Assembly (NCBI GenBank): GCA_913055615.1
Contig: CAJXKK010000005.1
Span: 55,207 to 119,206 of the forward strand
Direction: 5' to 3'
DNA: 64,000 nt
DNA from: an uncultured Ectothiorhodospiraceae bacterium
GTDB taxonomy: Bacteria > Pseudomonadota > Gammaproteobacteria > XJ16 > Halofilaceae
Part shown: in pieces, positions 8,207 through 64,000 of the stretch
How positions within the stretch are numbered: position 1 is the first letter of the stretch
Layout of the letters: each line of letters starts with the position of its first letter
Notes under the pieces: model-generated
The model's database searches: none
The model's input: only the letters and a program-made list of their open reading frames with translations
What the model was told of the DNA's origin: nothing
Made by a program: the position numbers and the translations under genes

Positions 8207-8434
8207 ATGAGTCAGGAGGTCGCCCGGGACGCGGAAGCCCGCGTGAGTGAGCTTGCGCGCCAGATCGAGGATCTCGCGGCGCTGTGCGATCGGCTGCGCA
8301 CGGAGAACCAGTCCCTGCGCCGTCAGCAGGAGTCGCTGTCGAGCGAGCGCGCGCAGCTGATCGAGAAAAACGAACAGGCGCGCGCCCGCGTCGAGGCGAT
8401 GATCTCCCGGCTCAAGGCGATGGAGAACTCCTGA
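8207..8434 (+). CDS. Short coiled-coil protein, TIGR02449 type
   Basis: Protein of 75 residues, almost entirely one predicted coiled coil rich in Arg, Glu and Leu (for example LARQIEDLAALCDRLR then LIEKNEQARARVEAMI). It matches the small TIGR02449-like family found immediately upstream of zapA in many gammaproteobacteria. The start ATG at 8207 is chosen because the family begins MS..VA and the promoter overlaps any earlier start. Its stop overlaps the zapA start (TGATG), so the two are coupled. A role with ZapA in division is plausible from context but not shown. Confidence 0.85.
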   Translation: MSQEVARDAEARVSELARQIEDLAALCDRLRTENQSLRRQQESLSSERAQLIEKNEQARARVEAMISRLKAMENS

Positions 8435-8739
8435 TGGCGGGTGAAGCCGTGCAGGTCACGGTCAAGATCCTCGACCGTGAGTACCAGATCGCCTGCAAAG
8501 AGGAAGAGCGTGACGATCTGCTGGCCGCGGCCGGGATCGTGAATGAGCGGATGAAGGAAATCCGCGGCCGAGGCAACGTGATCGGGACCGACCGGATCGC
8601 CGTCATGACGGCCCTGAACATGGCCCATGAGCTGCTTGAGCTCAGAGAGACGCAGGAGGCCTGTGAGCGCGTGCGCGACCAGATCGCCACCCTGCAGGAT
8701 CGCGTCGGCGCTGCTCTGGATGGGCATGGCGAGGGCTGA
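8434..8739 (+). CDS. zapA: Cell division protein ZapA
   Basis: FtsZ-ring stabilising protein of 101 residues. The N-terminal globular part contains VTVKILDREYQIAC and the motif DRIAVMTALNMAHELL leads into a C-terminal coiled coil used for dimerisation and tetramerisation. Start ATG at 8434 overlaps the stop of the preceding coiled-coil gene. It lies directly upstream of 6S RNA and ygfA, the standard gammaproteobacterial arrangement. Confidence 0.94.
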   Translation: MAGEAVQVTVKILDREYQIACKEEERDDLLAAAGIVNERMKEIRGRGNVIGTDRIAVMTALNMAHELLELRETQEACERVRDQIATLQDRVGAALDGHGEG

Positions 8740-8742
8740 GCG

Positions 8743-8797
8743 CTCCGAATAAACGGAGTCCCTGGTCGAGCGCCGCGGGCGCGGTGTTCCACCAGGG
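8743..8797. terminator. Two stem-loops between zapA and 6S RNA
   Basis: CTCCG (8743-8747) pairs with CGGAG (8754-8758) around an A-rich loop. CCCTGGT (8760-8766) pairs with ACCAGGG (8791-8797), with an inner CGCC/GGCG stem. No long T-run follows, so they may act as RNA-processing or end-protecting stems rather than classical terminators. Confidence 0.4.
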
Positions 8798-8810
8798 GTT
8801 TCAGGAGTTG

Positions 8811-9002
8811 GGGCACTTTCTGCGATGTACGTGAGTTCGCCGGGTTATACCCTTGAACCTAAGCAACACCCCGGGGATTTGTTTGGCAGCGGTTGTTGAG
8901 CATGTCCGCCGATGTGCGGAAAGCCTGATTCCCTCCAGCCCTCCCCACTTGAACCGCTGGTTCAAGGTCAAAGGCGGACAACGGCATGCGCGGTTTGTGC
9001 CC
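8811..9002 (+). ncRNA. ssrS: 6S RNA
   Basis: About 190 bases between zapA and ygfA, the conserved location of 6S RNA, which binds the sigma-70 holoenzyme and mimics an open promoter. Close matches to the E. coli RNA are visible: GGTTGTTGAGCATG followed by GCGGAAAGCCTGA in the central region, and CACTTGAACCGCTGGTTCAA in the 3' arm. The ends pair as a terminal stem (GGGCAC near 8811 with GTGCCC near 8997-9002). The exact 5' and 3' ends are estimates. Confidence 0.88.
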
Positions 9003-9038
9003 ACTTTTACATAGACGTCCCAGTAGACGAGGACTGCA

Positions 9039-9674
9039 ATGAAACAGGACATCGACCAGCAACGCGAAGTACTGCGCCAGTACGTGATCGAGCAGCGTAA
9101 TGCGCTGTCCCGGCACCAGCTGCGCGCCGCCGCACGCGACATGACGCTGCTTCTCGAATCGACGCCGGAGTTCCACCACGCGCTCCACATCGCCGCCTAC
9201 TGGCCGGTGAAGGGCGAGATGGATACCCGTGCGGTGATCGATCAGGCGGTTCGATACAACAAGCATGTCTATCTGCCGGTGATCGTCGAGGGCGACAGCA
9301 TGATGTTCGCGCCCTACGAGAAAGACATGCCGATGAAGAACAACCGCTTCGGCATCCCTGAACCCGATGTGGCGGCGGATCAGCTCGTCTCGCCGCGCGA
9401 TATGGACATCGTGATCGTGCCGCTCGTCGTCTTCGACAGCAACGGCCACCGCCTGGGCATGGGCGGCGGTTTCTACGATCGCACGTTCTCCTTCCTCAAC
9501 GAGGATCCGGATGCGGCCAAGCCCTGCCTCGTCGGTGCGGCCCACGAATTCCAGCACACCAGCGAGATCCCGGCGCATCCCTGGGATGTCCCGACCCGCA
9601 TGGTCGCGACGGAAGAGCGGGTCTGGCGCCGGTACCACGCCCTGCATGCGCAGGAGCAGGCCGAGACCGGCTGA
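9039..9674 (+). CDS. ygfA: 5-formyltetrahydrofolate cyclo-ligase
   Basis: ATP-dependent enzyme of 211 residues that converts 5-formyl-THF to methenyl-THF. It has an N-terminal helical region with REVLRQYVIEQRNALS, the phosphate-binding GMGGGFYDRTF near residue 142, and a C-terminal VPTRMVATEERVW segment. It directly follows 6S RNA and is probably read through from it, as in E. coli. Its product joins the same one-carbon pool as the glycine cleavage genes at the left edge. Confidence 0.95.
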   Translation: MKQDIDQQREVLRQYVIEQRNALSRHQLRAAARDMTLLLESTPEFHHALHIAAYWPVKGEMDTRAVIDQAVRYNKHVYLPVIVEGDSMMFAPYEKDMPMKNNRFGIPEPDVAADQLVSPRDMDIVIVPLVVFDSNGHRLGMGGGFYDRTFSFLNEDPDAAKPCLVGAAHEFQHTSEIPAHPWDVPTRMVATEERVWRRYHALHAQEQAETG

Positions 9675-9751
9675 ACAGCCCGGTGCACACCGCGGCGGCC
9701 GTTCCCCCGGGCGGTCGTCGCGTATTCCTTACCCCGTAGAAGGCAGACCCG

Positions 9752-10219
9752 ATGACGTGCTGGCTGTTCAAATCGGAACCCGATGTATTCGGGATCGACG
9801 ACCTCGCGGCCCAGCCCGGGCAGACCGATCACTGGGACGGCGTGCGCAACTACCAGGCACGCAATTTCATGCGCGACCGCATGAAAAAAGGCGAACTCGG
9901 GTTCTTCTACCACTCGAACACGAAAGTGCCCGGCATCGTGGGCATCGTCGAAATCGCCCGCGAGGGATACCCCGATCACACGGCCTTCGACCCCGAAGAC
10001 CCGCATTACGACCCGAAGAGCGATCCGGACAATCCGCGCTGGATCATGGTGGACGTGAAGCTCGTGCGCAAACTCGAGCGCACGATCACCCTGACCGAAC
10101 TCAAGGAGCTGGCCGGGCGGCCGGAGCTTGCCGAATTCCCGCTTGTGCGCAAGGGGAATCGGTTGTCGGTGATGCCGGTTACCGAGGAGCAGTGGGAGTT
10201 CGTTCTCGGGCTGGAGTAG
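9752..10219 (+). CDS. EVE domain-containing protein
   Basis: Protein of 155 residues consisting of one EVE domain (PUA-related fold). Typical segments are WLFKSEPDVFGIDDL at the N-terminus, DGVRNYQARNFMRDRM, GELGFFYHSN and GIVGIVEIAREGYPD. EVE proteins bind modified nucleotides in some systems, but this single-domain form is a widespread housekeeping protein often near ygfA. It is the last gene of this run; 77 bases separate it from ygfA. Confidence 0.92.
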   Translation: MTCWLFKSEPDVFGIDDLAAQPGQTDHWDGVRNYQARNFMRDRMKKGELGFFYHSNTKVPGIVGIVEIAREGYPDHTAFDPEDPHYDPKSDPDNPRWIMVDVKLVRKLERTITLTELKELAGRPELAEFPLVRKGNRLSVMPVTEEQWEFVLGLE

Positions 10220-10290
10220 TTCTTCCGGCCGATCGGCTGGCCGGTCTCATTTGGTCGCTCGTTTTATCGTTGAGTTCTCGTCGCATGCAG

Positions 10291-10308
10291 GTCGGGTTTG
10301 AACCCGAC
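10291..10308. repeat. REP-like hairpin, GTCGGGTTT family
   Basis: An 18-base palindrome, GTCGGGTTT followed by GAACCCGAC, of the same family as the two outer arms of the large palindrome that begins 22 bases further on. Confidence 0.6.
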
Positions 10309-10330
10309 TCCCCCGGCGGTTCCCCCCACC

Positions 10331-10563
10331 GTAGGTCGGGTTTTAACCCGACACCGGCGTGTCGGTTTCCAGGGCGTGTCCTTTCAGTCGACGCGTTTCG
10401 GTATGGGTTTTCCATTCTGGATATGTGGTCCGGGTTTCGCCCGCTGTCCGCGGGCGAAACCCACGCCACATATCCGAACCGAAAACACGGACACCGAACG
10501 ACACGGGCCAAAAGGACAGGTGCAAGACGCAGACACGCAGTGTCGGGTTAAAACCCGACCTAC
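10331..10563. repeat. 233-bp imperfect palindrome with REP-like ends
   Basis: The stretch is symmetrical about 10447. The outer arms are GTAGGTCGGGTTTTAACCCG at 10331 and its near-perfect inverse ending at 10563. The innermost arms are GGATATGTGG..GGGTTTCGCCCGC (10419-10444) and the inverse (10450-10476), with a 5-base loop. Between them the arms still match at roughly 70 percent. It fills the gap between the EVE gene and ilvA (10220-10669), and no gene is seen there. It resembles a MITE or a mosaic of REP units. Confidence 0.75.
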
Positions 10564-10669
10564 GAAGCGGTAAACGCGGATGTTTACGGGTACGGAAACC
10601 CCACGTCCCGGCGGACCAGACACCGGGATATCAATCGCACAGCGCCGGCGACGGGCCAGCGATTACGGA

Positions 10670-12184
10670 TCAGCGCAGAAAAGTCCGGTACGCCGCGTTA
10701 TCCGACTCCTCTTCCCAGAAATACCCCAGATCATCGAGGAATTTCCGGAACGCCTTGCCGTCTTCATCAGGCACCTGCATCCCGGCCAGAACCCGACCAT
10801 AGGCGGCGCCATGGTTGCGGTAGTGGAACAGCGATATGTTCCAGCCGCGCCCCATGCCGTCGAGGAAGTTCTGCAGCGCACCGGGCCGCTCGGGGAATTC
10901 GAACCGCAGGACGCGCTCGTTGGGCACCAGCCCGTTCGTATGCCCGCCGACGAGATAGCGTATATGGAGCTTCGCCATCTCGTTGTCGGTCAGGTCGAGG
11001 ATCTCGTAACCCTTGCCGCGCAGGTCATCGAGGATCGCCTTGCGTTCGTCCTCGCCACCACGGGTCTGCACACCGACAAAGACATGGGCCCGTTCGGTGT
11101 CGGCGTAGCGGTAATTGAACTCGGTGACCGAGCGCTTGCCGAGCGCGTTGCAGAATTTGCGGAAGGCGCCGGGGCGCTCGGGCAGCGTGGCCGCGAACAG
11201 CACCTCGCGGTGCTCGCCCAGCTCCGCGCGTTCGGCGACATGGCGCAGGCGGTCGAAATTGATATTGGCACCGCAGATGACCGGGATCATGTTCGCTTCG
11301 GTCAGACCTTCGCGCTCGACATAGCGCTTCATGCCCGCGACACCCAGCGCGCCGGCCGGCTCCGTCAGCGTGCGCGTATCGCCGAACACGTCCTTGATCG
11401 CCGCGCAGATCTCATCGGTGGTGACGGTCACGATCTCGTCCACGTATTTGCGGGCGAGCCGGAACGTCTCCTTGCCGGGACAGGCCACGGCAACACCATC
11501 GGCGAAGATCCCGACGTGCTTGAGGCGGGTACGGCGCCCCCGCTCGAGCGACACGGACATCGAGGCGGCATCCTCCGGCTCGACGCCGATGATCTTCGTC
11601 TCCGGGCGCAGATACTTCATGAACGCCGCAATACCGGTGATCAGGCCGCCGCCGCCGACCGGCACGAACACGGCGTGGAGGTTGTCGCCGAACTGGCGGC
11701 AGAGCTCCATGCCGACCGTCCCCTGCCCGGCGATCGTGTCGGGGTGGTCGTAGGGGTGGATGAACGGATAGCCGTGTTCCTCCTCGATCTCACGGGCGTG
11801 CGCGTAGGCCTGGTCGTAGGCATCGCCATGCAGGATCGCCCGCCCGCCCAGCGCCTTCACGGCATCGACCTTGATCTGCGGGGTCGTGCGTGGCATCACG
11901 ATCATGGCCTTGAGCCCGAGCTTCTTCGCGGCCAGCGCGACGCCCTGGGCATGATTGCCCGCGGACGAACAGGTCACCCCTTCGAGTTTCTGCTGCCGGC
12001 TCAGTTGCCAGATCCGGTTATAGGCGCCCCGCAGCTTGAACGAGAAGATGCTCTGCTGGTCCTCGCGCTTGAGCAGAATGCGATTACCCAGGCGGCGCGA
12101 GAGCGCGGGGGCTTCGTCGAGAGGGGATTCGATCGCGACATCGTAGACGCGCGCGGAGAGGATTCTTTCGATGTACTTATCCAT
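10670..12184 (-). CDS. ilvA: Threonine ammonia-lyase, biosynthetic
   Basis: PLP enzyme of 504 residues making 2-oxobutanoate from threonine, the first step of isoleucine synthesis. The PLP lysine lies in SFKLRGAYN near residue 48, the phosphate-binding loop is PVGGGGL near residue 176, and two ACT-like regulatory repeats follow (FAATLPERPGAF and LRFEFPERPGAL), as in the isoleucine-inhibited biosynthetic form. Divergent from rpiA, the conserved gammaproteobacterial pair. Confidence 0.97.
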   Translation of the reverse strand: MDKYIERILSARVYDVAIESPLDEAPALSRRLGNRILLKREDQQSIFSFKLRGAYNRIWQLSRQQKLEGVTCSSAGNHAQGVALAAKKLGLKAMIVMPRTTPQIKVDAVKALGGRAILHGDAYDQAYAHAREIEEEHGYPFIHPYDHPDTIAGQGTVGMELCRQFGDNLHAVFVPVGGGGLITGIAAFMKYLRPETKIIGVEPEDAASMSVSLERGRRTRLKHVGIFADGVAVACPGKETFRLARKYVDEIVTVTTDEICAAIKDVFGDTRTLTEPAGALGVAGMKRYVEREGLTEANMIPVICGANINFDRLRHVAERAELGEHREVLFAATLPERPGAFRKFCNALGKRSVTEFNYRYADTERAHVFVGVQTRGGEDERKAILDDLRGKGYEILDLTDNEMAKLHIRYLVGGHTNGLVPNERVLRFEFPERPGALQNFLDGMGRGWNISLFHYRNHGAAYGRVLAGMQVPDEDGKAFRKFLDDLGYFWEEESDNAAYRTFLR

Positions 12185-55684: not shown

Positions 55685-55751
55685 CGGTGCCTGCCCGGGC
55701 GCTTGGCGCCGCCGCGACACGCGGCGGCGCCAAGCGCCCGGGCAGGCACCG
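55685..55751. repeat. Perfect 31-bp inverted repeat with 5-base loop
   Basis: The arms 55685-55715 and 55721-55751 are exact inverses (starting CGGTGCCTGCCCGGGCGCTT) around the loop GACAC. There is no T-run. It is 28 bases upstream of tRNA-Met. This is the strongest hairpin in the window. Confidence 0.9.
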
Positions 55752-55779: not shown

Positions 55780-55855
55780 GGGCCCGTAGCTCAGTGGTTA
55801 GAGCAGGGAACTCATAATTCCTTGGTCGCTGGTTCGAATCCAGCCGGGCCTACCA
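55780..55855 (+). tRNA. tRNA-Met (elongator, anticodon CAT)
   Basis: A 76-base cloverleaf with encoded CCA. The D arm is GCTCAGTGGTTAGAGC, the anticodon loop ACTCATAAT gives CAT, and the T arm is GCTGGTTCGAATCCAGC. The acceptor has a G-U at its first pair. It marks the left boundary of the low-GC island. tRNA-Ile2 (lysidine-modified CAU) is less likely from the body sequence. Confidence 0.9.
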
Positions 55856-56094
55856 TTAATCAACAAGTTACGACGGCATACATATCGCTGCTCAAGCAAT
55901 GTAGACAGCGTGTAGACGCTACGAGGCACAACGCTTCGCCGCAGCGCCTCGACATCGTCGTACACGATCCGCTACCGACTTTCATGAAGCCACGGTTTGT
56001 GGGCATAGTGCGGTAGCGGAGCACCGACCACCAAGGTTGTGGCCTAAATGATGTAATCCGCGATGCCTTGCTCGTCAGCAAAGGAGCTATCAGA

Positions 56095-57712
56095 TTGGCC
56101 ATCCACATGCTGTTGCTCGACGAGAAATGGTTTGACCCCGTTCGAAGCGGGCGCAAAACCTCCACAATCCGAAGCGGTCACCGGGACCTCAAGTCAGACA
56201 GCTATCTCCTGTTCGTCGCCGCGGTCGACGGGTCTCCAACGTCCCCCCCCCGACAAGCAGCCAGTACGCGTGCGACGCTGCGAACACCTTAAGGTAGCCG
56301 ACCTTTCGGCCGATCATGCTCGTTGCGAGGGGAAACCTGACGTCAACGCTACGCGTGCCGAGCTCGCTGAAATTTACCCCGGGCTTGCGGACGATGACGC
56401 CATTACATTCGTTGAGTTTGACGTCATATTTCCGACGGAAGACATCCACGTACGATACGAGAACATCTCCCCAGACCACTTCGATGCTGCATTACAGGAG
56501 CTAGAACGCGACTTTGGTTGGGCTTCATGGACGACCGACCTCCATGCGATTTGGCAGGCTTTACCATCGCTCGATGCCGCCACTATGCATGATCGGGTGC
56601 CTGTCAGCACCCAAGACCCCGACCCGGAAAGCGGACGAGTCACAGTTTCCTTTCCCGGCACGTTCTTGGATTGGTCATACAATGCCATACCAAGCTTTTT
56701 CGCTCTAATAGCCGGAGACGTACTCGGCGCTCCCAATATGGGACGTAAAGCGGTAGTGGCGTCTTGTACGCTACCTAAATCTGTCAAGGCGCATTTTCTT
56801 GGCCCCCGCCTCGGCATTACTGGCCTCCGCAGTCTCCTTAACGTTCATGATCGGCCCATCGTAGCCTACTCTGTGAAGCCGCGATTTGGACTCAGCACGC
56901 CCGAGTTCGCCACGATATGCAAGATTGCCTCGCAGAGTGGGATCGACATTATTGAAGATGATGAACGGATGTCGAACCAACCCCGTTCACGACTCATCGA
57001 CCGCGCCAAAGCCGCCCTCGATGCTACCGCGGGCACCCATACCATTTACTCAGCGAACATAACAGGACGCGCGGACCATATCGTTAAGGTAGCGGACCAA
57101 CTGATAGATATCGGCGTTCAATGCCTGAAAATCGACGTTCTACCTGCGGGATTCGCCGCACTCCAAGGCGTATCGGAACTGATCCACCACCGCGGCAGTA
57201 ATGTCGCTATTACTGTTTATCCGGCAATGAAGACGCTCTATGAACGGGGCATGCCACGCTCTCTTATTCTCGAGCTCTGCCGCTTGTGTGGCGCAGATGT
57301 CGTGTATGCGGGTGTTCCGCCGATTCCTGAATCCGGTCGCCATCATGATCCCGCGCCGTTTCAACAAGCCGCCAGCCATCACGCGGCCCTAAAGCGCTCT
57401 TCGGAGCTACACAACCCCGTCCTACCGACAATTTCTACGAGTATCACGCCTCTGAACATAGGGGCCTACACCCAGATTGCAGGCCCCAACGTCGGATTCT
57501 TCGTAGGAGGAGGCATTCCCGCGTACCGGGGAACCCTCGCCGACGCATGCACCCTTATCATGCGAGCGCTACGGGATCCAGAGTTTGCGAAGAACATGAA
57601 GGCGGACGAGCAACAGATTCTCGAAGAGTCTTTTGGCGGAAATAGAGTCCTGGATTCCGAGGCATTCCCCGATCAGGCATGGGGCGCGTTTGAGCAGGCA
57701 CGAAGCATATGA
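56095..57712 (+). CDS. ASCH domain fused to a RuBisCO-like protein, interrupted by a frameshift at a C9 run
   Basis: The N-terminal part starts at TTG 56095, eight bases after AAAGGAG, and reads FDPVRSGRKTSTIRSG, a YqfB-like ASCH domain (AGRKTITIR in E. coli YqfB). The frame ends at 56292. From the C run (56243-56251) the next frame continues the same domain (HLKVADLSADHARCEG, RAELAEIYPGL, FVEFDVI) and runs without a start codon into a RuBisCO-superfamily protein: FLGPRLGITGLR, AYSVKPRFGLS, IIEDDERMSNQP, FFVGGGIP. One C fewer joins the parts into one protein of about 538 residues. The Lys of KPxxGLS is kept (56876-56878), but the carbamylated Lys of KDDE is Glu (56954-56956), so CO2 fixation is not expected. 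The stop overlaps the next gene (ATGA). Confidence 0.8.
56243..56251 (+). repeat. Poly-C tract (nine C) at the ASCH-RLP frameshift
   Basis: Nine C residues inside the ASCH coding part. With nine the two frames are out of register; with eight they are in register. This is a slippage-prone site, or a sequencing or assembly error. Confidence 0.9.
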
Positions 57713-58158
57713 GCACTGAGGTAGCGAGTGTTTTACTTCAGATCTCCGCGGCGATCCTAGCCGCGCATGTCGCCGTGGCGACACTTCTCCCGCATGTCAT
57801 CAAGAAACTTTCGGAAGCAGGCGAACAGTACACCGGCACAGGCTCTTCAGAAGCTCGCTTTCTCGAGCGCTATCACAAACCCGTCCGTATCTTCACGTTT
57901 CTTGCACAGGGATTCTGGATAAGTTACATCCTTTCTGGAGCAAGCGCCCTAACGCTAGCAATACATATCGGATTTTCAGATATACCCTGCACTTCATTTA
58001 CGTGCCATATTCTGTGGGCCCCATATATTGCGGCGGTTTTAGTCGCCTCCGCATTGACAACGTTGTTAGCTATAACCTGTGTGGCGTTGTATGTACTTTC
58101 ACTTGCAAGTCGTGACCTGATGCATGATCTGCTTGATGAAAAGCGCGGGAATCAGTAA
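57709..58158 (+). CDS. Island membrane protein with three transmembrane helices
   Basis: Protein of 149 residues, unknown family. Helix 1 spans about 5-30 (LLQISAAILAAHVAVATLLP), helix 2 about 62-88 (FLAQGFWISYILSGASALTL) and helix 3 about 102-132 (APYIAAVLVASALTTLLAIT). The tail is charged (LMHDLLDEKRGNQ). Its ATG overlaps the stop of the RuBisCO-like gene by 4 bases, so the two are coupled and the product may anchor or partner it. Codon use is unlike the GC-rich core. Confidence 0.75.
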   Translation: MSTEVASVLLQISAAILAAHVAVATLLPHVIKKLSEAGEQYTGTGSSEARFLERYHKPVRIFTFLAQGFWISYILSGASALTLAIHIGFSDIPCTSFTCHILWAPYIAAVLVASALTTLLAITCVALYVLSLASRDLMHDLLDEKRGNQ

Positions 58159-58171
58159 GGCTATATAAACC

Positions 58172-58915
58172 ATGTTTAGACAACACACGCCGGTTTCCGG
58201 TACTTCGTATCGCCTATACAGGGACGCTGAGGGGACGGTTATCATCCCCCCGGGATACAACATCCGGGATAATGACTCGGTTTACCGCTCCCAAACGGCC
58301 GTACAACTCGATCGACAGAGCGGGACTGCACGACTAAAGGATGGGGTCGTTCATGTGCCGGGCGGAACTGCGGTACTGCATCCCTATTTCCATACAACAT
58401 GGCTGGACCGGAACAGCGAAAAACTCGATTTGCACATAGCCGTCGATCTATCCATGAGACTGGAATGTGCAGCAGTATTGCGTAGATCTCACTACCTTGG
58501 TGACTCGCCCGGCGTCTATATCTATGCTCGCAGGAATCACGGGATCATTGGTGTTGTGGCCCTTTCACGCCTTCCTCCTCACATGAGGCCCGCAGATCGC
58601 AAGGCAATCGAACGTGATCGAGGTGGTTATATCGAAGCACTGTGGCTGAGGCGGGTCTGCGTAGTACCCGAGGAAGTAGGCACGGGTGTTGGTACTGCGC
58701 TTGTCCAGGCTTCGTTAGAATTCGCCCAAGATCGCTGGGTACCCAAGCCTGCCATAGCGGAACTTATCGCGACGGATCCGAATCATAGTTTTCTCCTCAA
58801 GGCGGGCTTTAGCAAGGCCCCAGAGGGTCGCCGCGGAAGGTTAGGTTTTGTAGAGTCGGATGGCAGCCGAGTCTACAAACAGGCGAATAAGTACTATTAC
58901 TGGCGCGATCTCTAG
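58172..58915 (+). CDS. GNAT-fold acetyltransferase
   Basis: Protein of 247 residues. The N-terminal 85 residues are unassigned. The GNAT core has LRRSHYLGDSPGVYIYARR near residue 103, the acceptor-strand region ALWLRRVCVVPEEVGTGVGT near 151 with the acetyl-CoA pyrophosphate loop (EEVGTGVGTAL), and SFLLKAGFSKA near 209. The RxSHYLG motif recalls GNAT domains found with ASCH or ATPase partners in mobile DNA. The substrate is unknown. It lies 13 bases after the membrane gene and 13 before an ASCH gene. Confidence 0.8.
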   Translation: MFRQHTPVSGTSYRLYRDAEGTVIIPPGYNIRDNDSVYRSQTAVQLDRQSGTARLKDGVVHVPGGTAVLHPYFHTTWLDRNSEKLDLHIAVDLSMRLECAAVLRRSHYLGDSPGVYIYARRNHGIIGVVALSRLPPHMRPADRKAIERDRGGYIEALWLRRVCVVPEEVGTGVGTALVQASLEFAQDRWVPKPAIAELIATDPNHSFLLKAGFSKAPEGRRGRLGFVESDGSRVYKQANKYYYWRDL

Positions 58916-58928
58916 CATCGCAGCGCTT

Positions 58929-59291
58929 ATGGCGAAAGAAATGAGTACACGAGTTTTCGTACCGCTTACGACTCGCGCATATGAGTGGTTCATGTCAGGG
59001 TCGAAGGAGTACGAGTTGCGCCGGGCGCGACGACAATTCCGCCCGGAGAATCTTCGTCGCGGACGCGACGTAGAGTTGAGGCGAGGATACTCGGGCGCAA
59101 GCATATGGGGTTCTGTAGGCGATGTGGTGGTTGCCGACGACCTCGGAAGCATTTTTGCCTCGATCGAGTACACGCGAGTCGTCCCCGATGCCTCATCTAT
59201 GGAGGACGCTATCCAGACGGCAATACAGTTCGTTGGTGAAAACGGGCCGTATGTAGCCTTCGAAGTTCAGCAAAACCGCTCTCAACAATGA
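58929..59291 (+). CDS. ASCH domain-containing protein
   Basis: Protein of 120 residues made of one ASCH domain (PUA-like fold). It has VPLTTRAYEWFMSGSKEYEL followed by RR, the typical GxKxxELRR element, then RRGRDVELRRGYSG and a C-terminal strand YVAFEVQQN. ASCH domains bind or process nucleosides and RNA; E. coli YqfB is an N4-acetylcytidine amidohydrolase. The ATG at 58929 is chosen because earlier starts lie inside the GNAT gene; an ATG at 58941 is also possible. No strong ribosome site is seen, so translation may be coupled. Confidence 0.75.
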   Translation: MAKEMSTRVFVPLTTRAYEWFMSGSKEYELRRARRQFRPENLRRGRDVELRRGYSGASIWGSVGDVVVADDLGSIFASIEYTRVVPDASSMEDAIQTAIQFVGENGPYVAFEVQQNRSQQ

Positions 59292-59333
59292 ACATCGTAC
59301 AGTTATTGACAGCACTCCAAGAAAAAGATCTTT

Positions 59334-60149
59334 ATGGGTATAGAAAACAGCAATGATCTTTTTACTTTGCATCCGGGCGCTCGCATCCCCAAGAGCGAAC
59401 TTTATGATCTGATCCAATATTCAAAAGTGGAAGGTTCTTCGCAATGGCTAGGAGAGGCGTCTTCGATCGGCAATACTCCCCAACAGGGAATTAACTGGAT
59501 CGGGTCTGCAGAATCTCCAAAGGGTGTAATCATAAAGACCAGTCCCGGACGGTACCCACAAGATGGGTGGATCGGATCTGCCGGCGAGTATTACCGATAC
59601 TCGTTCAAGGCGATCAAGGGAAAGGTCAGTCTTCAACACAAGCCGAATCAGGTTCTCGTTCAACAACCACGGCTACAGTATCCGGTTTTCCTTTTTATCC
59701 AAGACAAGGGCCAGTGGCTGTTCGAGGGCTTTTACACGGTCCATACGGTCGAGGACTCGTCGGTCATTTTGAACCGCGTTCCTATCCTGAACGCCCAAGA
59801 AAGTTCACCGCATGGGGAACCGACGGGTAAATCCGAGGGTACTCGGCGGTATGTGACGCACATTGTGGCGGAGCGAAACAAGAGTCTTGTTAAGGCGGTC
59901 AAGGAAGCTCGTGAATGGGTATGCGATATCTGTGGCACCGACTTTAAGACGGTATATGGAACCCCTTATATCGAAGCCCATCACAAGGTCCCGGTTTCCC
60001 AGCTTCCGGAAGCCCACGAATCGCGGCCCGAGGATTTCGCGCTGCTCTGCCCAAACTGTCACACGGCCGTTCATATCCGGATGCGTCAAGCGGAAGAGAA
60101 CTACGCCGAGAGCAAGGAGGCATTGCGCTCACGGTGGTATGAAACCTAG
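59334..60149 (+). CDS. HNH endonuclease, McrA-like, with N-terminal recognition domain
   Basis: Protein of 271 residues. The C-terminal HNH domain has WVCDICGTDFK near residue 199, IEAHHKVPVSQL near 218 and FALLCPNCHTAVH near 238: two CxxC zinc pairs plus the catalytic His. The first 150 residues (QQGINWIGSAESPKGV.., EYYRYSFKAIKGKVSLQHKP, WLFEGFYTVHTV) look like the base-recognition domains of McrA-type modification-dependent nucleases, though I cannot name the domain with certainty. It ends the co-directional module. A modification-dependent restriction role is likely but unproven. Confidence 0.8.
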   Translation: MGIENSNDLFTLHPGARIPKSELYDLIQYSKVEGSSQWLGEASSIGNTPQQGINWIGSAESPKGVIIKTSPGRYPQDGWIGSAGEYYRYSFKAIKGKVSLQHKPNQVLVQQPRLQYPVFLFIQDKGQWLFEGFYTVHTVEDSSVILNRVPILNAQESSPHGEPTGKSEGTRRYVTHIVAERNKSLVKAVKEAREWVCDICGTDFKTVYGTPYIEAHHKVPVSQLPEAHESRPEDFALLCPNCHTAVHIRMRQAEENYAESKEALRSRWYET

Positions 60150-60472: not shown

Positions 60473-62278
60473 TTAGCCAACGCCGTCCTCAGCTTCCACG
60501 ATTCCCATCCGCACCGCGTAGAACCGGATCCGCATGTCGCCCTTGGCCGGTATGGACCGCTTGCTCGTATGCCTTCCGCCCTCATTTGTCGCCAATAACC
60601 CACGCTCCTTGAGCGCGGTGCTGACCTGTCGTGGATCCATGCCCTGGCACGCCTCCGCGAACCCTTCCGGCGTGAACAGGTACAGTTGGTATCGTTTGTC
60701 GATGTAGCCCACGAGGTCACGCACGTCCGGGCCGCCGCTGTCGCTGGCGTCGGCAAACCGACTGCCGTGGCGAAGAATAAAGTCACGGACCGTCATGACG
60801 CCCCGCTCGCCCTCGGCGATATGGCCACCGTCTGCGAGCCAACCGCGCCGCACAAAGTCGACGGCGTTTCCGATTTCCGCGGGCTCAAGCGGCACGATGC
60901 CCGCTTCCGCGGCCCATTCACCGGCAACCAGAACCAGAGCGAGGCGATCCAGTGCTCGGACCGCCTCAGCCGGTAGACCGGATACCGCGAGCCGTGTCCA
61001 TGCTTCCTCAAGTCGGTTCCGGACAGCCTCCGATAACGCTGCCTCCGTCGAGTATCCGCCAATCAGCGCCTCCAGGAATGCCGGCCCGGCGGTTCCGTAA
61101 CAGTCGGCACAGGCGCTTTTAAGGGCCTGCGCGTAGGCAGCTGGGTCACTCCCAGGGGCGGGCGCGGTTATCACGCTGCCACCAGCGGGAAGATCCATGA
61201 AGCGGACACGCTGCCCGGCGCGGGGTTGCCGCCCACCGTCCTGCCGGACACGCTGGGCAACGGATATCTCGCCCGTAGACAGAACCAGACTCCGCCACGA
61301 GCGCACCTGCCTGAGCGCACGCTCGCTGTTCATGGCCGCCTTGCCCTGTCCACCCATCAGGTCGTACACGAGGCGGCCGAAATCCTGCGTGCCGGAGGTC
61401 CCGATCTCGTCGAGCACCAGCAACCCGTCATTGTGCGCGGCGGCCAGGCCCTCAAGGGCATTGGCTGTCGTGTTCCATCGGCGGATATACGCTTTATCGG
61501 ACTCCGCCCCCGGATCGGCTCCACAGCCCCACACGCTCGCGGCAACCTGCGCGGCCGTGGTTTTCCCATGCGAGGAACGGCCATAAAGGTGGAAGCCGCC
61601 GGCCTCGAGCCGGGCGGGCTTCAGCAAAGGCGCGGCGAACGACACCGACAACGCGAACACCAGGAACGGATTGCCGGCGAGCGGCGAGGCTACTTTATGC
61701 TGCCACGCCTCAAGCGTGCCCTGGGTCCGCATGGTGTCCGCGGAAGGGCTGTGGCGTTCCGGCTGGAAATGGATGGGCTCCGCGTTGTCTCCTCCGATCA
61801 CCTGCGCGGGCAGCACATACGCCATGCCCGTGCCGAAGGTGGACTCGGCCAGCCAACCGACCCGGTCCACGCTGCGTACCCGCTCCCTCGGCTCAAAAGT
61901 GCCCAGGTAGGTCATCAGCGCGCGTTCCTTACCCGGCACGACTGCGAGCCCCAGGTCCGCGAGGTCCTGGACAAGTGTTCCGCTGCTTTCGTGCAGCCGT
62001 GACCTCGCGATCGCCAGCTGGCGGCGGTGGCCGTCCGAATCGAGCCACTCCAGTAGCAGGCCCCAGTTGCGACCTTCCCCGCTCCGCGCCTGAGCTGTCA
62101 CCCACACCGGACCAGCGATCAGAACCGGTGAGCCTTTGGGGCCGGTCGGTTCCAGAAACACCCCGCGGTCCGAAAGCGTGTAGCCGGGCGGCGTCTCGAT
62201 CCCGCTCCACGCATCATCGGCGGCCGAGGGAAAGTTCGTGACCGTGGCTGTGGAGATCTCGTCAGGATGTTCACTCAT
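60473..62278 (-). CDS. DUF927 domain-containing ATPase
   Basis: Protein of 601 residues. The N-terminal 200 residues contain YLGTFEPRERVRSVDRVGWL; the P-loop is HLYGRSSHGKTTAAQVAASV near residue 229, followed by RRWNTTANALEGLAAAHNDG and Walker B LLVLDEIG near 287. The C-terminal part ends with a small winged-helix-like region (MDPRQVSTALKERGLL). DUF927 proteins occur in phages and integrative elements next to AlpA regulators and are thought to be replication helicases. GC content is high, unlike the module to its left. Confidence 0.88.
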   Translation of the reverse strand: MSEHPDEISTATVTNFPSAADDAWSGIETPPGYTLSDRGVFLEPTGPKGSPVLIAGPVWVTAQARSGEGRNWGLLLEWLDSDGHRRQLAIARSRLHESSGTLVQDLADLGLAVVPGKERALMTYLGTFEPRERVRSVDRVGWLAESTFGTGMAYVLPAQVIGGDNAEPIHFQPERHSPSADTMRTQGTLEAWQHKVASPLAGNPFLVFALSVSFAAPLLKPARLEAGGFHLYGRSSHGKTTAAQVAASVWGCGADPGAESDKAYIRRWNTTANALEGLAAAHNDGLLVLDEIGTSGTQDFGRLVYDLMGGQGKAAMNSERALRQVRSWRSLVLSTGEISVAQRVRQDGGRQPRAGQRVRFMDLPAGGSVITAPAPGSDPAAYAQALKSACADCYGTAGPAFLEALIGGYSTEAALSEAVRNRLEEAWTRLAVSGLPAEAVRALDRLALVLVAGEWAAEAGIVPLEPAEIGNAVDFVRRGWLADGGHIAEGERGVMTVRDFILRHGSRFADASDSGGPDVRDLVGYIDKRYQLYLFTPEGFAEACQGMDPRQVSTALKERGLLATNEGGRHTSKRSIPAKGDMRIRFYAVRMGIVEAEDGVG

Positions 62279-62427
62279 GCTTCGCCCCCTTTAGCATCGC
62301 TGTCCGCCCGGTTCGACGCCCTATAGGGGCGTTTTCCCCCTATAGGGCCTTCCGGAAACCGCGGCCGCCCGAAAGTCACTCGCACGGCCAGCGCCGCCGC
62401 CAGCAACAACCCTTTAGCGGCATACAT
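62275..62427 (-). CDS. Short ORF linking AlpA and DUF927 genes
   Basis: A frame of 50 residues starts with an ATG inside the last codons of the AlpA gene and ends overlapping the DUF927 start (ATGA). It begins MYAAKGLLLAAALAVRV, a possible short hydrophobic helix, then is basic and polar (GGKRPYRASNRADSDAKGGE). The two overlaps suggest it is translated, but a chance frame in GC-rich DNA cannot be excluded. It contains the TATAGGG palindrome. Confidence 0.4.
   Translation of the reverse strand: MYAAKGLLLAAALAVRVTFGRPRFPEGPIGGKRPYRASNRADSDAKGGEA
62318..62348. promoter_or_regulatory. Perfect 12-bp inverted repeat GCCCTATAGGGG
   Basis: GCCCTATAGGGG (62318-62329) and its exact inverse (62337-62348) are separated by 7 bases, just upstream of the DUF927 gene and inside the short ORF. 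Each arm is itself nearly palindromic (CCCTATAGGG). A repressor site or RNA hairpin controlling the replication gene is possible. Confidence 0.5.
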
Positions 62428-62632
62428 GGCTAAAGCTCCCGTCATCGCTGGTGGACCGCCGGACCTGACCGGCCAGATAACGATCGAGTTCTTCGGCCCG
62501 ATAGCGGACGGCGCGGGAACCTACCCGAACAAAGGGAATCCGGGCTCCCGCCCAACGGTCCCGCTCAAGGAAAGACTTGCTCATGCCGATATATTCGGCG
62601 GCTTCTTCAGTCGTAAGTAGGGCTGGTTTCAT
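62414..62632 (-). CDS. AlpA-type helix-turn-helix regulator/excisionase
   Basis: Protein of 72 residues. The MerR-like winged helix reads LLTTEEAAEYIGMSKSFLER, then IPFVRVGSRAVRYRAEELDR, as in AlpA/excisionase proteins that control integrase genes or excision of P4-like elements. The start ATG at 62632 has GGAG six bases upstream. It precedes the short ORF and DUF927 gene in one operon. Confidence 0.88.
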   Translation of the reverse strand: MKPALLTTEEAAEYIGMSKSFLERDRWAGARIPFVRVGSRAVRYRAEELDRYLAGQVRRSTSDDGSFSHVCR

Positions 62633-62784
62633 CTTGCTCTCCGTTTGCTGTCGTAAGACACAACGGAGAATGCGGAGACGCAGGGCGACAAAGAATTGCT
62701 CGAGCCACCCGGGGTATACCGCGAGCGGCCACGGGTATACTTCCGGCGGGCCGAGGGATACCCGGTGTCGATTGGTCGTTAGAG

Positions 62785-63540
62785 TTACGCTTGGCTCTGG
62801 CGGCGGTGTCGCCCGATCCACTTGGCTATCTGATGCACTGGATCATCAGTGGTCAGGACGCCGTCCACCTCATCCTGAAAGAGCTGATACAGGCGCTTAG
62901 CGGCACCACGGTCTGAACGTCGACCACCAGCCATCTGGGCGTCGTAGTGCGTCAATAATCGTCTGCGAAGCTCATCAAATGGGCGCATCGCCGCCTGTTT
63001 CCCCCGCCCTCCTCGCTGTCGCTGCGTATCGAGATACGCCGCGTAACAGACCGCCTCAAGGGCTTCCATAGCAGTTCCCCACCGGCGCCAATCGTGCCGC
63101 TGCTGCTCCTCGTGCAGGTCGAGTTCCGAGACCAAAGCACTTCCGTGGATTTCTTCCCAGGACTGACCTTCGTAATACAACTCCTCCCCAACAGAGGCGA
63201 GCGCGAGGAGCGCAAAGTAGTCAGGCCATGTTGCACGAGGGAAACCCGTCTGACCCTTAAGATCGAACACCGGGATCAATCGGCTTAATGCCTTGGCGCG
63301 GTTCATGAATACGGCCTCGCCGTGTTCACCCCCACGAATTTCGGCCATGAATCGTTGGCCACCTTGCCCCAGCAGCCAATGGAGCGAGTCAAGCCCGTTT
63401 TCGATTTGCTCGTAAGAGCGTCCAGACAGGACAATTCGAGCCCGCGCGAGTTGATCGCCAAACTGGAATGCCAGAGCGCCGTCCAATTCTGTGTCGAAAT
63501 AGTCGAAGTGTTCACTACGCTCGTACAGAACAAATTCCAT
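62785..63540 (-). CDS. Island protein of unknown function
   Basis: Protein of 251 residues beginning MEFVLYERSEHFDYFDTELD. It is soluble, rich in Trp, Arg and Glu, with helical segments such as WRRWGTAMEALEAVCYAAYL and a basic C-terminus (KWIGRHRRQSQA). I do not recognise a family. The N-terminal third could be a small recognition domain and the rest helical. Located between AlpA and the HIT gene, all on the minus strand. Confidence 0.6.
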   Translation of the reverse strand: MEFVLYERSEHFDYFDTELDGALAFQFGDQLARARIVLSGRSYEQIENGLDSLHWLLGQGGQRFMAEIRGGEHGEAVFMNRAKALSRLIPVFDLKGQTGFPRATWPDYFALLALASVGEELYYEGQSWEEIHGSALVSELDLHEEQQRHDWRRWGTAMEALEAVCYAAYLDTQRQRGGRGKQAAMRPFDELRRRLLTHYDAQMAGGRRSDRGAAKRLYQLFQDEVDGVLTTDDPVHQIAKWIGRHRRQSQA

Positions 63541-63597: not shown

Positions 63598-64000
63598 TCA
63601 TGTCCCTTCCTGGTAATCGCCTTTATCCGGGATCGTGTGGCGCACACCCCCACGAGGGCTCGTGACGTCACCGTTGCGGCGGGGAATCAGGTGCACGTGA
63701 CAGTGAAACACCGTTTGCCCCGCCGATGCCCCGATATTCACGCCAATGTTGAAACCAGAGACCTCCGGATCGCGCTCTTCGATTTTATGACGTGCCTCGG
63801 TGATAAGCGCATTCACCGCATTGACTTCCGACTGAAAGAGGCTGAAGTAATCGGCCTGATGACGTTTAGGGATTACGAGGGCGTGCAGTGGCGTTACCGG
63901 GTAGCCATCCAACAGCGCGTACGCCAGTTCGTTCTCGGCAATTTGGCGATCGGCCGGCGGCGCGCAGAAGACACAGTCAGCCTCTCGGTGCTCAAAGGAC
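63598..64000 (-). CDS. HIT family protein, N-terminus beyond window
   Basis: Histidine triad protein, 133 residues visible, still open at the right edge. The active-site motif is GQTVFHCHVHLIPRR near the C-terminal end. A CxxC pair (DCVFCAPP) near the edge is the zinc site typical of bacterial HIT proteins. The segment HALVIPKRHQADYFSL is characteristic. Such proteins hydrolyse nucleoside phosphoramidates or dinucleoside polyphosphates. An internal ATG at 63912 is not the real start because the upstream frame keeps the family sequence. Confidence 0.9.
   Translation of the reverse strand, partial: SFEHREADCVFCAPPADRQIAENELAYALLDGYPVTPLHALVIPKRHQADYFSLFQSEVNAVNALITEARHKIEERDPEVSGFNIGVNIGASAGQTVFHCHVHLIPRRNGDVTSPRGGVRHTIPDKGDYQEGT

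What the first reader, a model, noticed from the sequence alone, without database searches (positions are those of the whole stretch)
56095..60149. Compact ASCH-RLP / membrane / GNAT / ASCH / HNH module
Five genes on one strand with overlaps or short gaps (4-base overlap, then 13, 13 and 42 bases) combine two ASCH domains, an acetyltransferase, a RuBisCO-fold protein, a membrane protein and an McrA-like nuclease. One ASCH domain resembles YqfB, an N4-acetylcytidine amidohydrolase. A testable idea is a nucleoside acetylation/deacetylation system tied to modification-dependent restriction or defence. The link between RLP chemistry (five-carbon sugar phosphates) and nucleosides fits but is speculative.
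Basis: inference. Interest (0 to 1): 0.82.

Follow-up and report, generated by a model that had tools for sequence, protein, structure and literature searches.

The report
Mobile gene cassette with RuBisCO-like protein
A small set of genes built round a relative of the carbon-fixing enzyme RuBisCO, but with an altered active site, has moved as a unit between very different bacteria on mobile DNA, next to defence genes in one case, and may be an undescribed defence or nucleoside-chemistry system.

Summary
It occurs complete in Anaerobacterium chartisolvens (Bacillota) and on a Salinibacter ruber plasmid (Rhodothermota), in the order GNAT-ASCH2/ASCH1-RLP-membrane, a rotation of the window's order. 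A truncated RLP-membrane remnant lies on a Piscirickettsia plasmid. The HNH gene is not part of the core. In the window the module is cargo of a 10.7-kb integrative element in tRNA-Met that a sister species lacks at this site. The Anaerobacterium copy adjoins a row of defence genes. The RLPs carry Glu where 48 of 49 compared RuBisCO/RLP rows have the carbamylated Lys, so they are not RuBisCOs. ASCH1 keeps YqfB's catalytic Lys, Thr and Arg. No description was found in the library searched. Best guess, unproven: a defence or element-competition cassette acting on an acylated, nucleoside-like metabolite, with the membrane protein as partner or effector. GNAT and membrane-protein homology rests mainly on position.

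The parts
56095..56242 (+). ASCH1, N-terminal half (TTG start after AAAGGAG); its frame ends at a stop at 56292
   Evidence: Pfam ASCH profile 3-36, E 0.0017; aligns with ASCH1 of L032 and L055
56243..56251 (+). run of nine C at the frameshift inside ASCH1
   Evidence: only run of 8 or more C/G in the window; 22 overlapping C9 hits in the 3.0-Mb genome
56255..56434 (+). ASCH1, C-terminal half, in one frame with the RLP
   Evidence: Pfam ASCH profile 48-102, E 4e-4; alignment with L032 and L055
56435..57712 (+). RuBisCO-like protein (RLP) fused to ASCH1
   Evidence: RuBisCO_large E 2.2e-20; 30% identity to L032 RLP; two-relative profile E 1.3e-31 among 510 ORFs
57709..58158 (+). small membrane protein, three predicted TM segments, 4-base overlap with RLP
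   Evidence: hydropathy; same position and segment number in L032 and L055; no sequence-level homology shown
58172..58915 (+). GNAT-fold acyltransferase
   Evidence: Acetyltransf_1 E 8.8e-6; HYL, GxGxGT and FLxKAG motifs shared with L032 and L055; first of 510 ORFs with their profile but E 0.12
58929..59291 (+). ASCH2 (KxxExR type)
   Evidence: 37% identity to the N-terminal half of the L032 tandem ASCH protein; E 1e-29 with profile of relatives
59334..60149 (+). McrA-like HNH endonuclease; neighbour, not part of the conserved core
   Evidence: HNH E 7.7e-8; McrA 6ghc E 5e-6 in the HNH part; absent from L032 and L055
55780..55855 (+). tRNA-Met gene, attachment site
   Evidence: ARAGORN
55814..55856 (+). 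left copy of a 43-bp direct repeat; right copy at window-scale 66546-66588, beyond the window
60473..62278 (-). DUF927 primase/helicase-like gene of the element
   Evidence: Pfam DUF927 E 5.7e-67
62414..62821 (-). excisionase-type HTH of the element
   Evidence: HTH_17 E 6.6e-10; NCBIfam excise E 2.8e-8
62785..63540 (-). unknown gene of the element
   Evidence: no Pfam family
63598..64000 (-). HNH-HIT protein gene of the element (runs on to window-scale 64605)
   Evidence: HIT E 1.1e-17, HNH E 1.1e-12

Best explanation
The core (GNAT, ASCH2, ASCH1, RLP, membrane protein) is one functional unit spread horizontally by mobile elements. Shown: conserved linkage, domain fusions, mobile setting, and loss of RuBisCO catalytic residues. 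Inferred: it is a defence or element-competition cassette. The GNAT adds an acyl group to an amine on a nucleobase, nucleoside or similar metabolite; ASCH1, which keeps YqfB's catalytic residues, can remove it; ASCH2 (a PUA-like fold) binds the modified molecule; the RLP, with Glu in place of the carbamylated Lys, carries out an enolase- or aldolase-like step on a phosphorylated pentose part; and the membrane protein, made next to the RLP, is the output (membrane damage or export). Whether the net effect is a signal, a poison or a cure is open.
For: Linkage: ASCH2 of the window and GNAT of L032, used as separate queries, each matched exactly one of 72,556 plasmid records, and it was the same one, which also encodes ASCH1, RLP and a TM protein. 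Fusions: ASCH1-RLP in the window, ASCH2-ASCH1 in L032 and L055. RLP-membrane junction: 4-base overlap in window and L032, 3-base gap in L055, 4-base overlap in the Piscirickettsia remnant. Mobility: element with 43-bp repeats, integrase, excisionase and primase, not present at this site in sister species G002; plasmids in L055 and L079. Defence neighbours in L067: DUF1016/YhcG (PDC-S02, E 1.4e-127), PDC-S13 (3.9e-138), PDC-S60 (8e-26), Mrr-type nuclease, WYL. ASCH1 residues. RLP residues: K201 to E in 3 of 3 module against 0 of 49 others; K177 to R, T173 to S, H327 to Y likewise 3 of 3 against 0 of 49; K175 and D203 kept.
Against: Nothing here shows an activity or a phage phenotype. No component reached a convincing PADLOC family. 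GNAT homology between window and relatives is weak (E 0.12); Pfam does not name the L055 protein and scores the L032 one below cut-off. The membrane proteins cannot be linked by sequence. Only L032 lies beside a clear row of defence genes; the plasmid copies do not prove defence. L055 has lost E204, so metal binding may differ. The window copy has a broken ASCH1 gene. Both structure models were of low confidence.
Confidence: 0.4

Rival explanations
1. Resistance to, or salvage of, a toxic N-acylated nucleoside or nucleoside antibiotic: ASCH1 deacylates, GNAT re-acylates or detoxifies, RLP breaks down the sugar phosphate, the membrane protein exports or imports.
For: ASCH1 keeps YqfB catalytic residues; cargo on mobile elements is common for resistance (recalled).
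Against: The membrane protein is short, with three predicted TM segments, small for a transporter; no transporter, kinase or nucleosidase travels with it.
Confidence: 0.22
2. DNA or RNA base hypermodification (Mom-like): GNAT modifies a base, RLP makes the donor, ASCH domains read or edit the mark, and a nuclease such as the HNH protein restricts.
For: GNAT and Mom share an H-Y dipeptide ahead of the acyl-CoA-binding region; ASCH domains are proposed DNA-mark readers in print (passages of PMC11037411).
Against: hhalign finds no relation to Mu Mom (probability 0.1%); the membrane protein has no place in it; HNH is absent from two of three intact loci.
Confidence: 0.12
3. A toxin-antitoxin pair (GNAT toxin on aminoacyl-tRNA, ASCH as reverser) with accessory genes, kept for element maintenance.
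For: Mobile setting; GNAT and ASCH2 genes adjacent or overlapping in 3 of 3 intact loci.
Against: The GNAT proteins (247-343 aa) are longer than GNAT toxins of TA pairs (recalled, about 150-180 aa), and no DNA-binding antitoxin is present.
Confidence: 0.1
4. No system: unrelated cargo genes that landed together.
For: The window's HNH is such a passenger.
Against: Same components adjacent in three loci, of which the named two are of different phyla, with shared fusions.
Confidence: 0.03

Closest known systems
Form IV RuBisCO-like proteins (MtnW/DK-MTP-1P enolase, DeepYkr-type, OiaX)
   Same: Same catalytic barrel; K175 and D203 kept; part of the phosphate-binding glycines kept
   Different: K201 is Glu, K177 Arg, H327 Tyr in 3 of 3; far below the NCBIfam cut-offs for MtnW and OiaX; genetic setting unlike any RLP pathway known to me
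YqfB N4-acetylcytidine amidohydrolase (ASCH)
   Same: Lys21, Thr24, Arg26, a Glu/Asp at 74 and Tyr89 match in ASCH1
   Different: Profile match weak (E 0.004 to 1te7; 15.7 bits against a cut-off of 93); Asp27 not kept; fused to RLP or to a second ASCH
Phage Mu Mom (GNAT-fold DNA base modifier)
   Same: H-Y dipeptide ahead of the acyl-CoA-binding region
   Different: No profile similarity; GNAT of the module keeps the acyl-CoA GxGxGT loop
Phage-satellite and tRNA-targeted islands carrying defence cargo
   Same: Integrase, excisionase-type HTH, primase/helicase, tRNA attachment repeats, cargo at the far end
   Different: No capsid-hijacking genes recognised; the cargo is not a listed defence system

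Membership tests
RuBisCO (carboxylase) | carbamylated Lys201 with Asp203 and Glu204 (spinach numbering, recalled) | tested here: not met
   Glu at 201 in 3 of 3; Asp203 3 of 3; Glu204 2 of 3
RuBisCO (carboxylase) | Lys334 of loop 6 (recalled) | tested here: not met
   R, R, A in the module
RuBisCO superfamily, form IV-like | RuBisCO_large barrel above the Pfam cut-off | tested here: met
   73.5, 75.9 and 38.2 bits against 30.1
MtnW / OiaX | NCBIfam equivalog cut-off | tested here: not met
   at most 65.6 of 513.6 and 61.5 of 700 bits
YqfB-type amidohydrolase | Lys21, Thr24, Arg26 essential; Glu74 strongly needed (passages of PMC6972931) | tested here: met
   K, T, R in 3 of 3; E, D, D at 74
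YqfB-type amidohydrolase | NCBIfam NF003443 cut-off | tested here: not met
   15.7 against 93 bits
YqfB-type amidohydrolase | hydrolysis of N4-acylcytidine | not testable with these tools
   needs an enzyme assay
GNAT acyltransferase | Acetyltransf profile above cut-off and acyl-CoA loop | tested here: inconclusive
   window above cut-off; L032 below, L055 none; GxGxGT in 3 of 3
Mom DNA-modifying family | profile similarity to Mu Mom | tested here: not met
   hhalign probability 0.1%
Known anti-phage defence systems | core components match PADLOC models | tested here: not met
   no hit for the window core genes; for the L032 GNAT and RLP only methyltransferase models at 13-19 bits, taken as chance

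The most novel reading that the evidence does not exclude
A new immune system in which a RuBisCO-fold enzyme, altered by a Lys-to-Glu change that could remove its need for CO2 activation, works with an acyltransferase and an acylnucleoside-hydrolysing ASCH enzyme on a nucleotide-derived signal or poison, with a three-segment membrane protein as effector; the C9 run may make it phase-variable in the window's genome.
Probability: 0.2. Interest if true: 0.92.

Novelty: categorically new. Interest (0 to 1): 0.72.

Why it matters
A RuBisCO-fold protein joined to ASCH domains in a horizontally moving cassette has no counterpart in the library searched. If it is a defence system, it would bring RuBisCO-type chemistry into bacterial immunity; if metabolic, it defines an unassigned RuBisCO-like subfamily with a natural Lys-to-Glu replacement at the activating lysine, directly useful for asking what that lysine is needed for.

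Tried and rejected
Mom kinship of the GNAT: rejected at profile level. The HNH gene as part of the core: rejected. Ordinary RuBisCO or known RLP: rejected. Viral carriage: seven scans of viral contigs with RLP, GNAT and ASCH queries found none. In phage records the RLP and GNAT found none; the tandem ASCH protein found 16 records, none covering more than 41% of it. Window GNAT against plasmids found none. Streptomyces plasmid ASCH hits: two neighbourhoods of seven such records read, no RLP. Structure prediction: mean pLDDT 37.5 and 41.9, so no fold search was run. Phase variation at the C9 run: kept only as a possibility, since C9 runs occur elsewhere in the genome (22 overlapping hits) and a sequencing error fits as well.

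The RLP tree (52 rows) sets the three module RLPs apart from the other 49 with support 98/90, but all three branches are long, and the tool warns that such joins may be false. Before the tree, rows that repeat the window or L032 sequence were dropped (L001, L002, L033, L059, L065, L070, L073).
Full report
WHAT IS THERE. The one error is the first gene: the frame from TTG 56095 ends at 56292, and the rest of ASCH1 with the RLP is in another frame. The break falls at a C9 run (56243-56251), the only run of 8 or more C or G in 64 kb. C9 runs gave 22 overlapping hits in the 3.0-Mb genome, so the run is uncommon but not unique. A sequencing error, a real mutation and phase variation all fit.

IT TRAVELS AS A UNIT. 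One pattern scan of the species-genome collection (84,980 species by the tool's description) with the RLP matched 71 stretches, of which one encodes a relative: Anaerobacterium chartisolvens, L032. Beside it lie a GNAT-like gene (8355-9308), a tandem ASCH2-ASCH1 protein (9298-10014), the RLP (9992-11341) and a membrane protein (11338-11859), overlapping in that order. ASCH2 of the window then found exactly one of 72,556 plasmid records, Salinibacter ruber pSR67, and the L032 GNAT as a separate query found the same single record. That plasmid has GNAT, tandem ASCH, RLP and an unlisted 141-aa membrane ORF in the same order. A search with the Salinibacter RLP found 114 plasmid records, mostly weak RuBisCO-like matches, but one, a Piscirickettsia salmonis plasmid, holds a C-terminal RLP fragment (34% identity, E 4e-15) overlapped by 4 bases by a 172-aa membrane protein, between an IS30 element and an integrase gene.

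IT IS RARE. In samples of whole genomes, which overlap one another, only the source genome matched strongly: 1 of 143 relatives (61 further genomes matched the RLP at E 3.6e-21 or weaker), 1 of 391 in the class of L032 (18 others at E 2.3e-26 or weaker), 1 of 398, 1 of 348 (five more with only an ASCH1-like match at E 8.4e-8 or weaker), 1 of 58, 1 of 321 and 1 of 329 at E 1e-30. Neither of the two same-genus genomes (G001, G002) had an RLP or ASCH match. The pattern scan finds close relatives only, so more distant copies are surely missed.

HOW GOOD IS EACH HOMOLOGY. A profile made only from L032 and L055 was run on 510 ORFs of the window and its right-hand extension. RLP: E 1.3e-31. ASCH2: 1e-29. 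ASCH1 N-half: 5.4e-6. GNAT: first of 510, but E 0.12, so it rests on shared motifs (HYL, GxGxGT, FLxKAG) and its place beside ASCH2. Membrane protein: not detected; it rests on place, size and three hydrophobic segments in each of the three intact loci; the Piscirickettsia one shows four.

SETTING. The tRNA-Met 3' half (55814-55856) is repeated, 43 bp exact, at window-scale 66546-66588, next to a tyrosine integrase (65131-66360, -). Between lie DUF927 primase/helicase, an excisionase-type HTH, an unknown gene and an HNH-HIT protein. In sister species G002 the tRNA is followed within about 54 bp by sequence that in the window's genome begins at 71857, so G002 lacks both the element and 5 kb more. 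L032's upstream neighbours include DUF1016/YhcG, a Bro-N protein, a STAND-type ATPase, a DUF4062 protein, an Mrr-type nuclease and WYL regulators, several with strong PADLOC candidate-defence matches; the STAND match (8.4e-10) and the Mrr matches are weak. The Salinibacter copy adjoins DUF4357 pieces, one with an HsdM N-terminus, and a DUF2779 protein.

ACTIVE SITES. On a 52-row alignment (RuBisCO residue numbers recalled) the module RLPs have E at 201 (others 48 K, 1 R), R at 177 (0 of 49), S at 173 (0 of 49) and Y at 327 (0 of 49); K175 and D203 are kept in all. E204 is kept in 2 of 3, H294 in 1 of 3, and K334 is lost in 3 of 3. So it is not a carboxylase of the known type; a Glu could stand in for the carbamate. 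ASCH1 matches YqfB structures 1te7 and 9kyf weakly (E 0.004 and 0.011), yet keeps K, T and R of the catalytic set, with E, D, D at position 74 and Tyr at 89. The passages of PMC6972931 that I read report K21A, T24A and R26A inactive and E74A with a turnover about 1000-fold lower on N4-acetylcytidine. ASCH2 has KxxExR in place of KxxTxR.

WHAT IT PROBABLY DOES. Fusions (ASCH1-RLP; ASCH2-ASCH1) and fixed neighbours (GNAT-ASCH2, ASCH1-RLP and RLP-membrane in 3 of 3 intact loci) argue for one pathway or complex. Chemistry is inferred: acyl transfer, amide hydrolysis on a cytidine-like substrate, and a pentose-phosphate step. A defence role is inferred from setting only. HNH is a passenger, since neither other intact locus has it, and its best full-length plasmid relative (43% identity) stands beside a Z1, AIPR and PD-(D/E)XK cluster.

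IN PRINT. Six full-text searches of the open-access library (listings only) gave no paper on such a module. Passages of PMC12707154 and PMC11037411 discuss ASCH as a PUA-like domain and possible reader of modified bases. Subscription journals and preprints were not searched.

Noticed in passing
55814-66588 (window scale; right end beyond the window): 10.7-kb integrative element in tRNA-Met with integrase, excisionase-type HTH and DUF927 primase; resembles small satellite-like islands.
   Followed up: partly
63598-64605 (window scale): HNH-HIT two-domain protein in the same element; the HIT part weakly matches the PADLOC model ThsC2 (E 1.3e-8).
   Followed up: no
56243-56251: C9 run exactly at the ASCH1 frameshift, a possible slippage site or an assembly error.
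   Followed up: partly
55685-55751: Long perfect inverted repeat just upstream of tRNA-Met, partly kept in sister species G002.
   Followed up: no
66589-71857 (window scale, beyond the window): Further stretch absent from G002 at this site, with a GGDEF-EAL-GAF protein.
   Followed up: no
L079:7971-8908: Truncated RLP plus membrane protein on a Piscirickettsia plasmid, apparently a decayed copy of the module.
   Followed up: partly
   Followed up: no
Pasteurella phage Pmp13 OR544130.1 25900-26043: Short ASCH2-like match (41.7% over 48 aa, E 1e-3), the only one of 16 phage records matching the ASCH2 half of the query.
   Followed up: no
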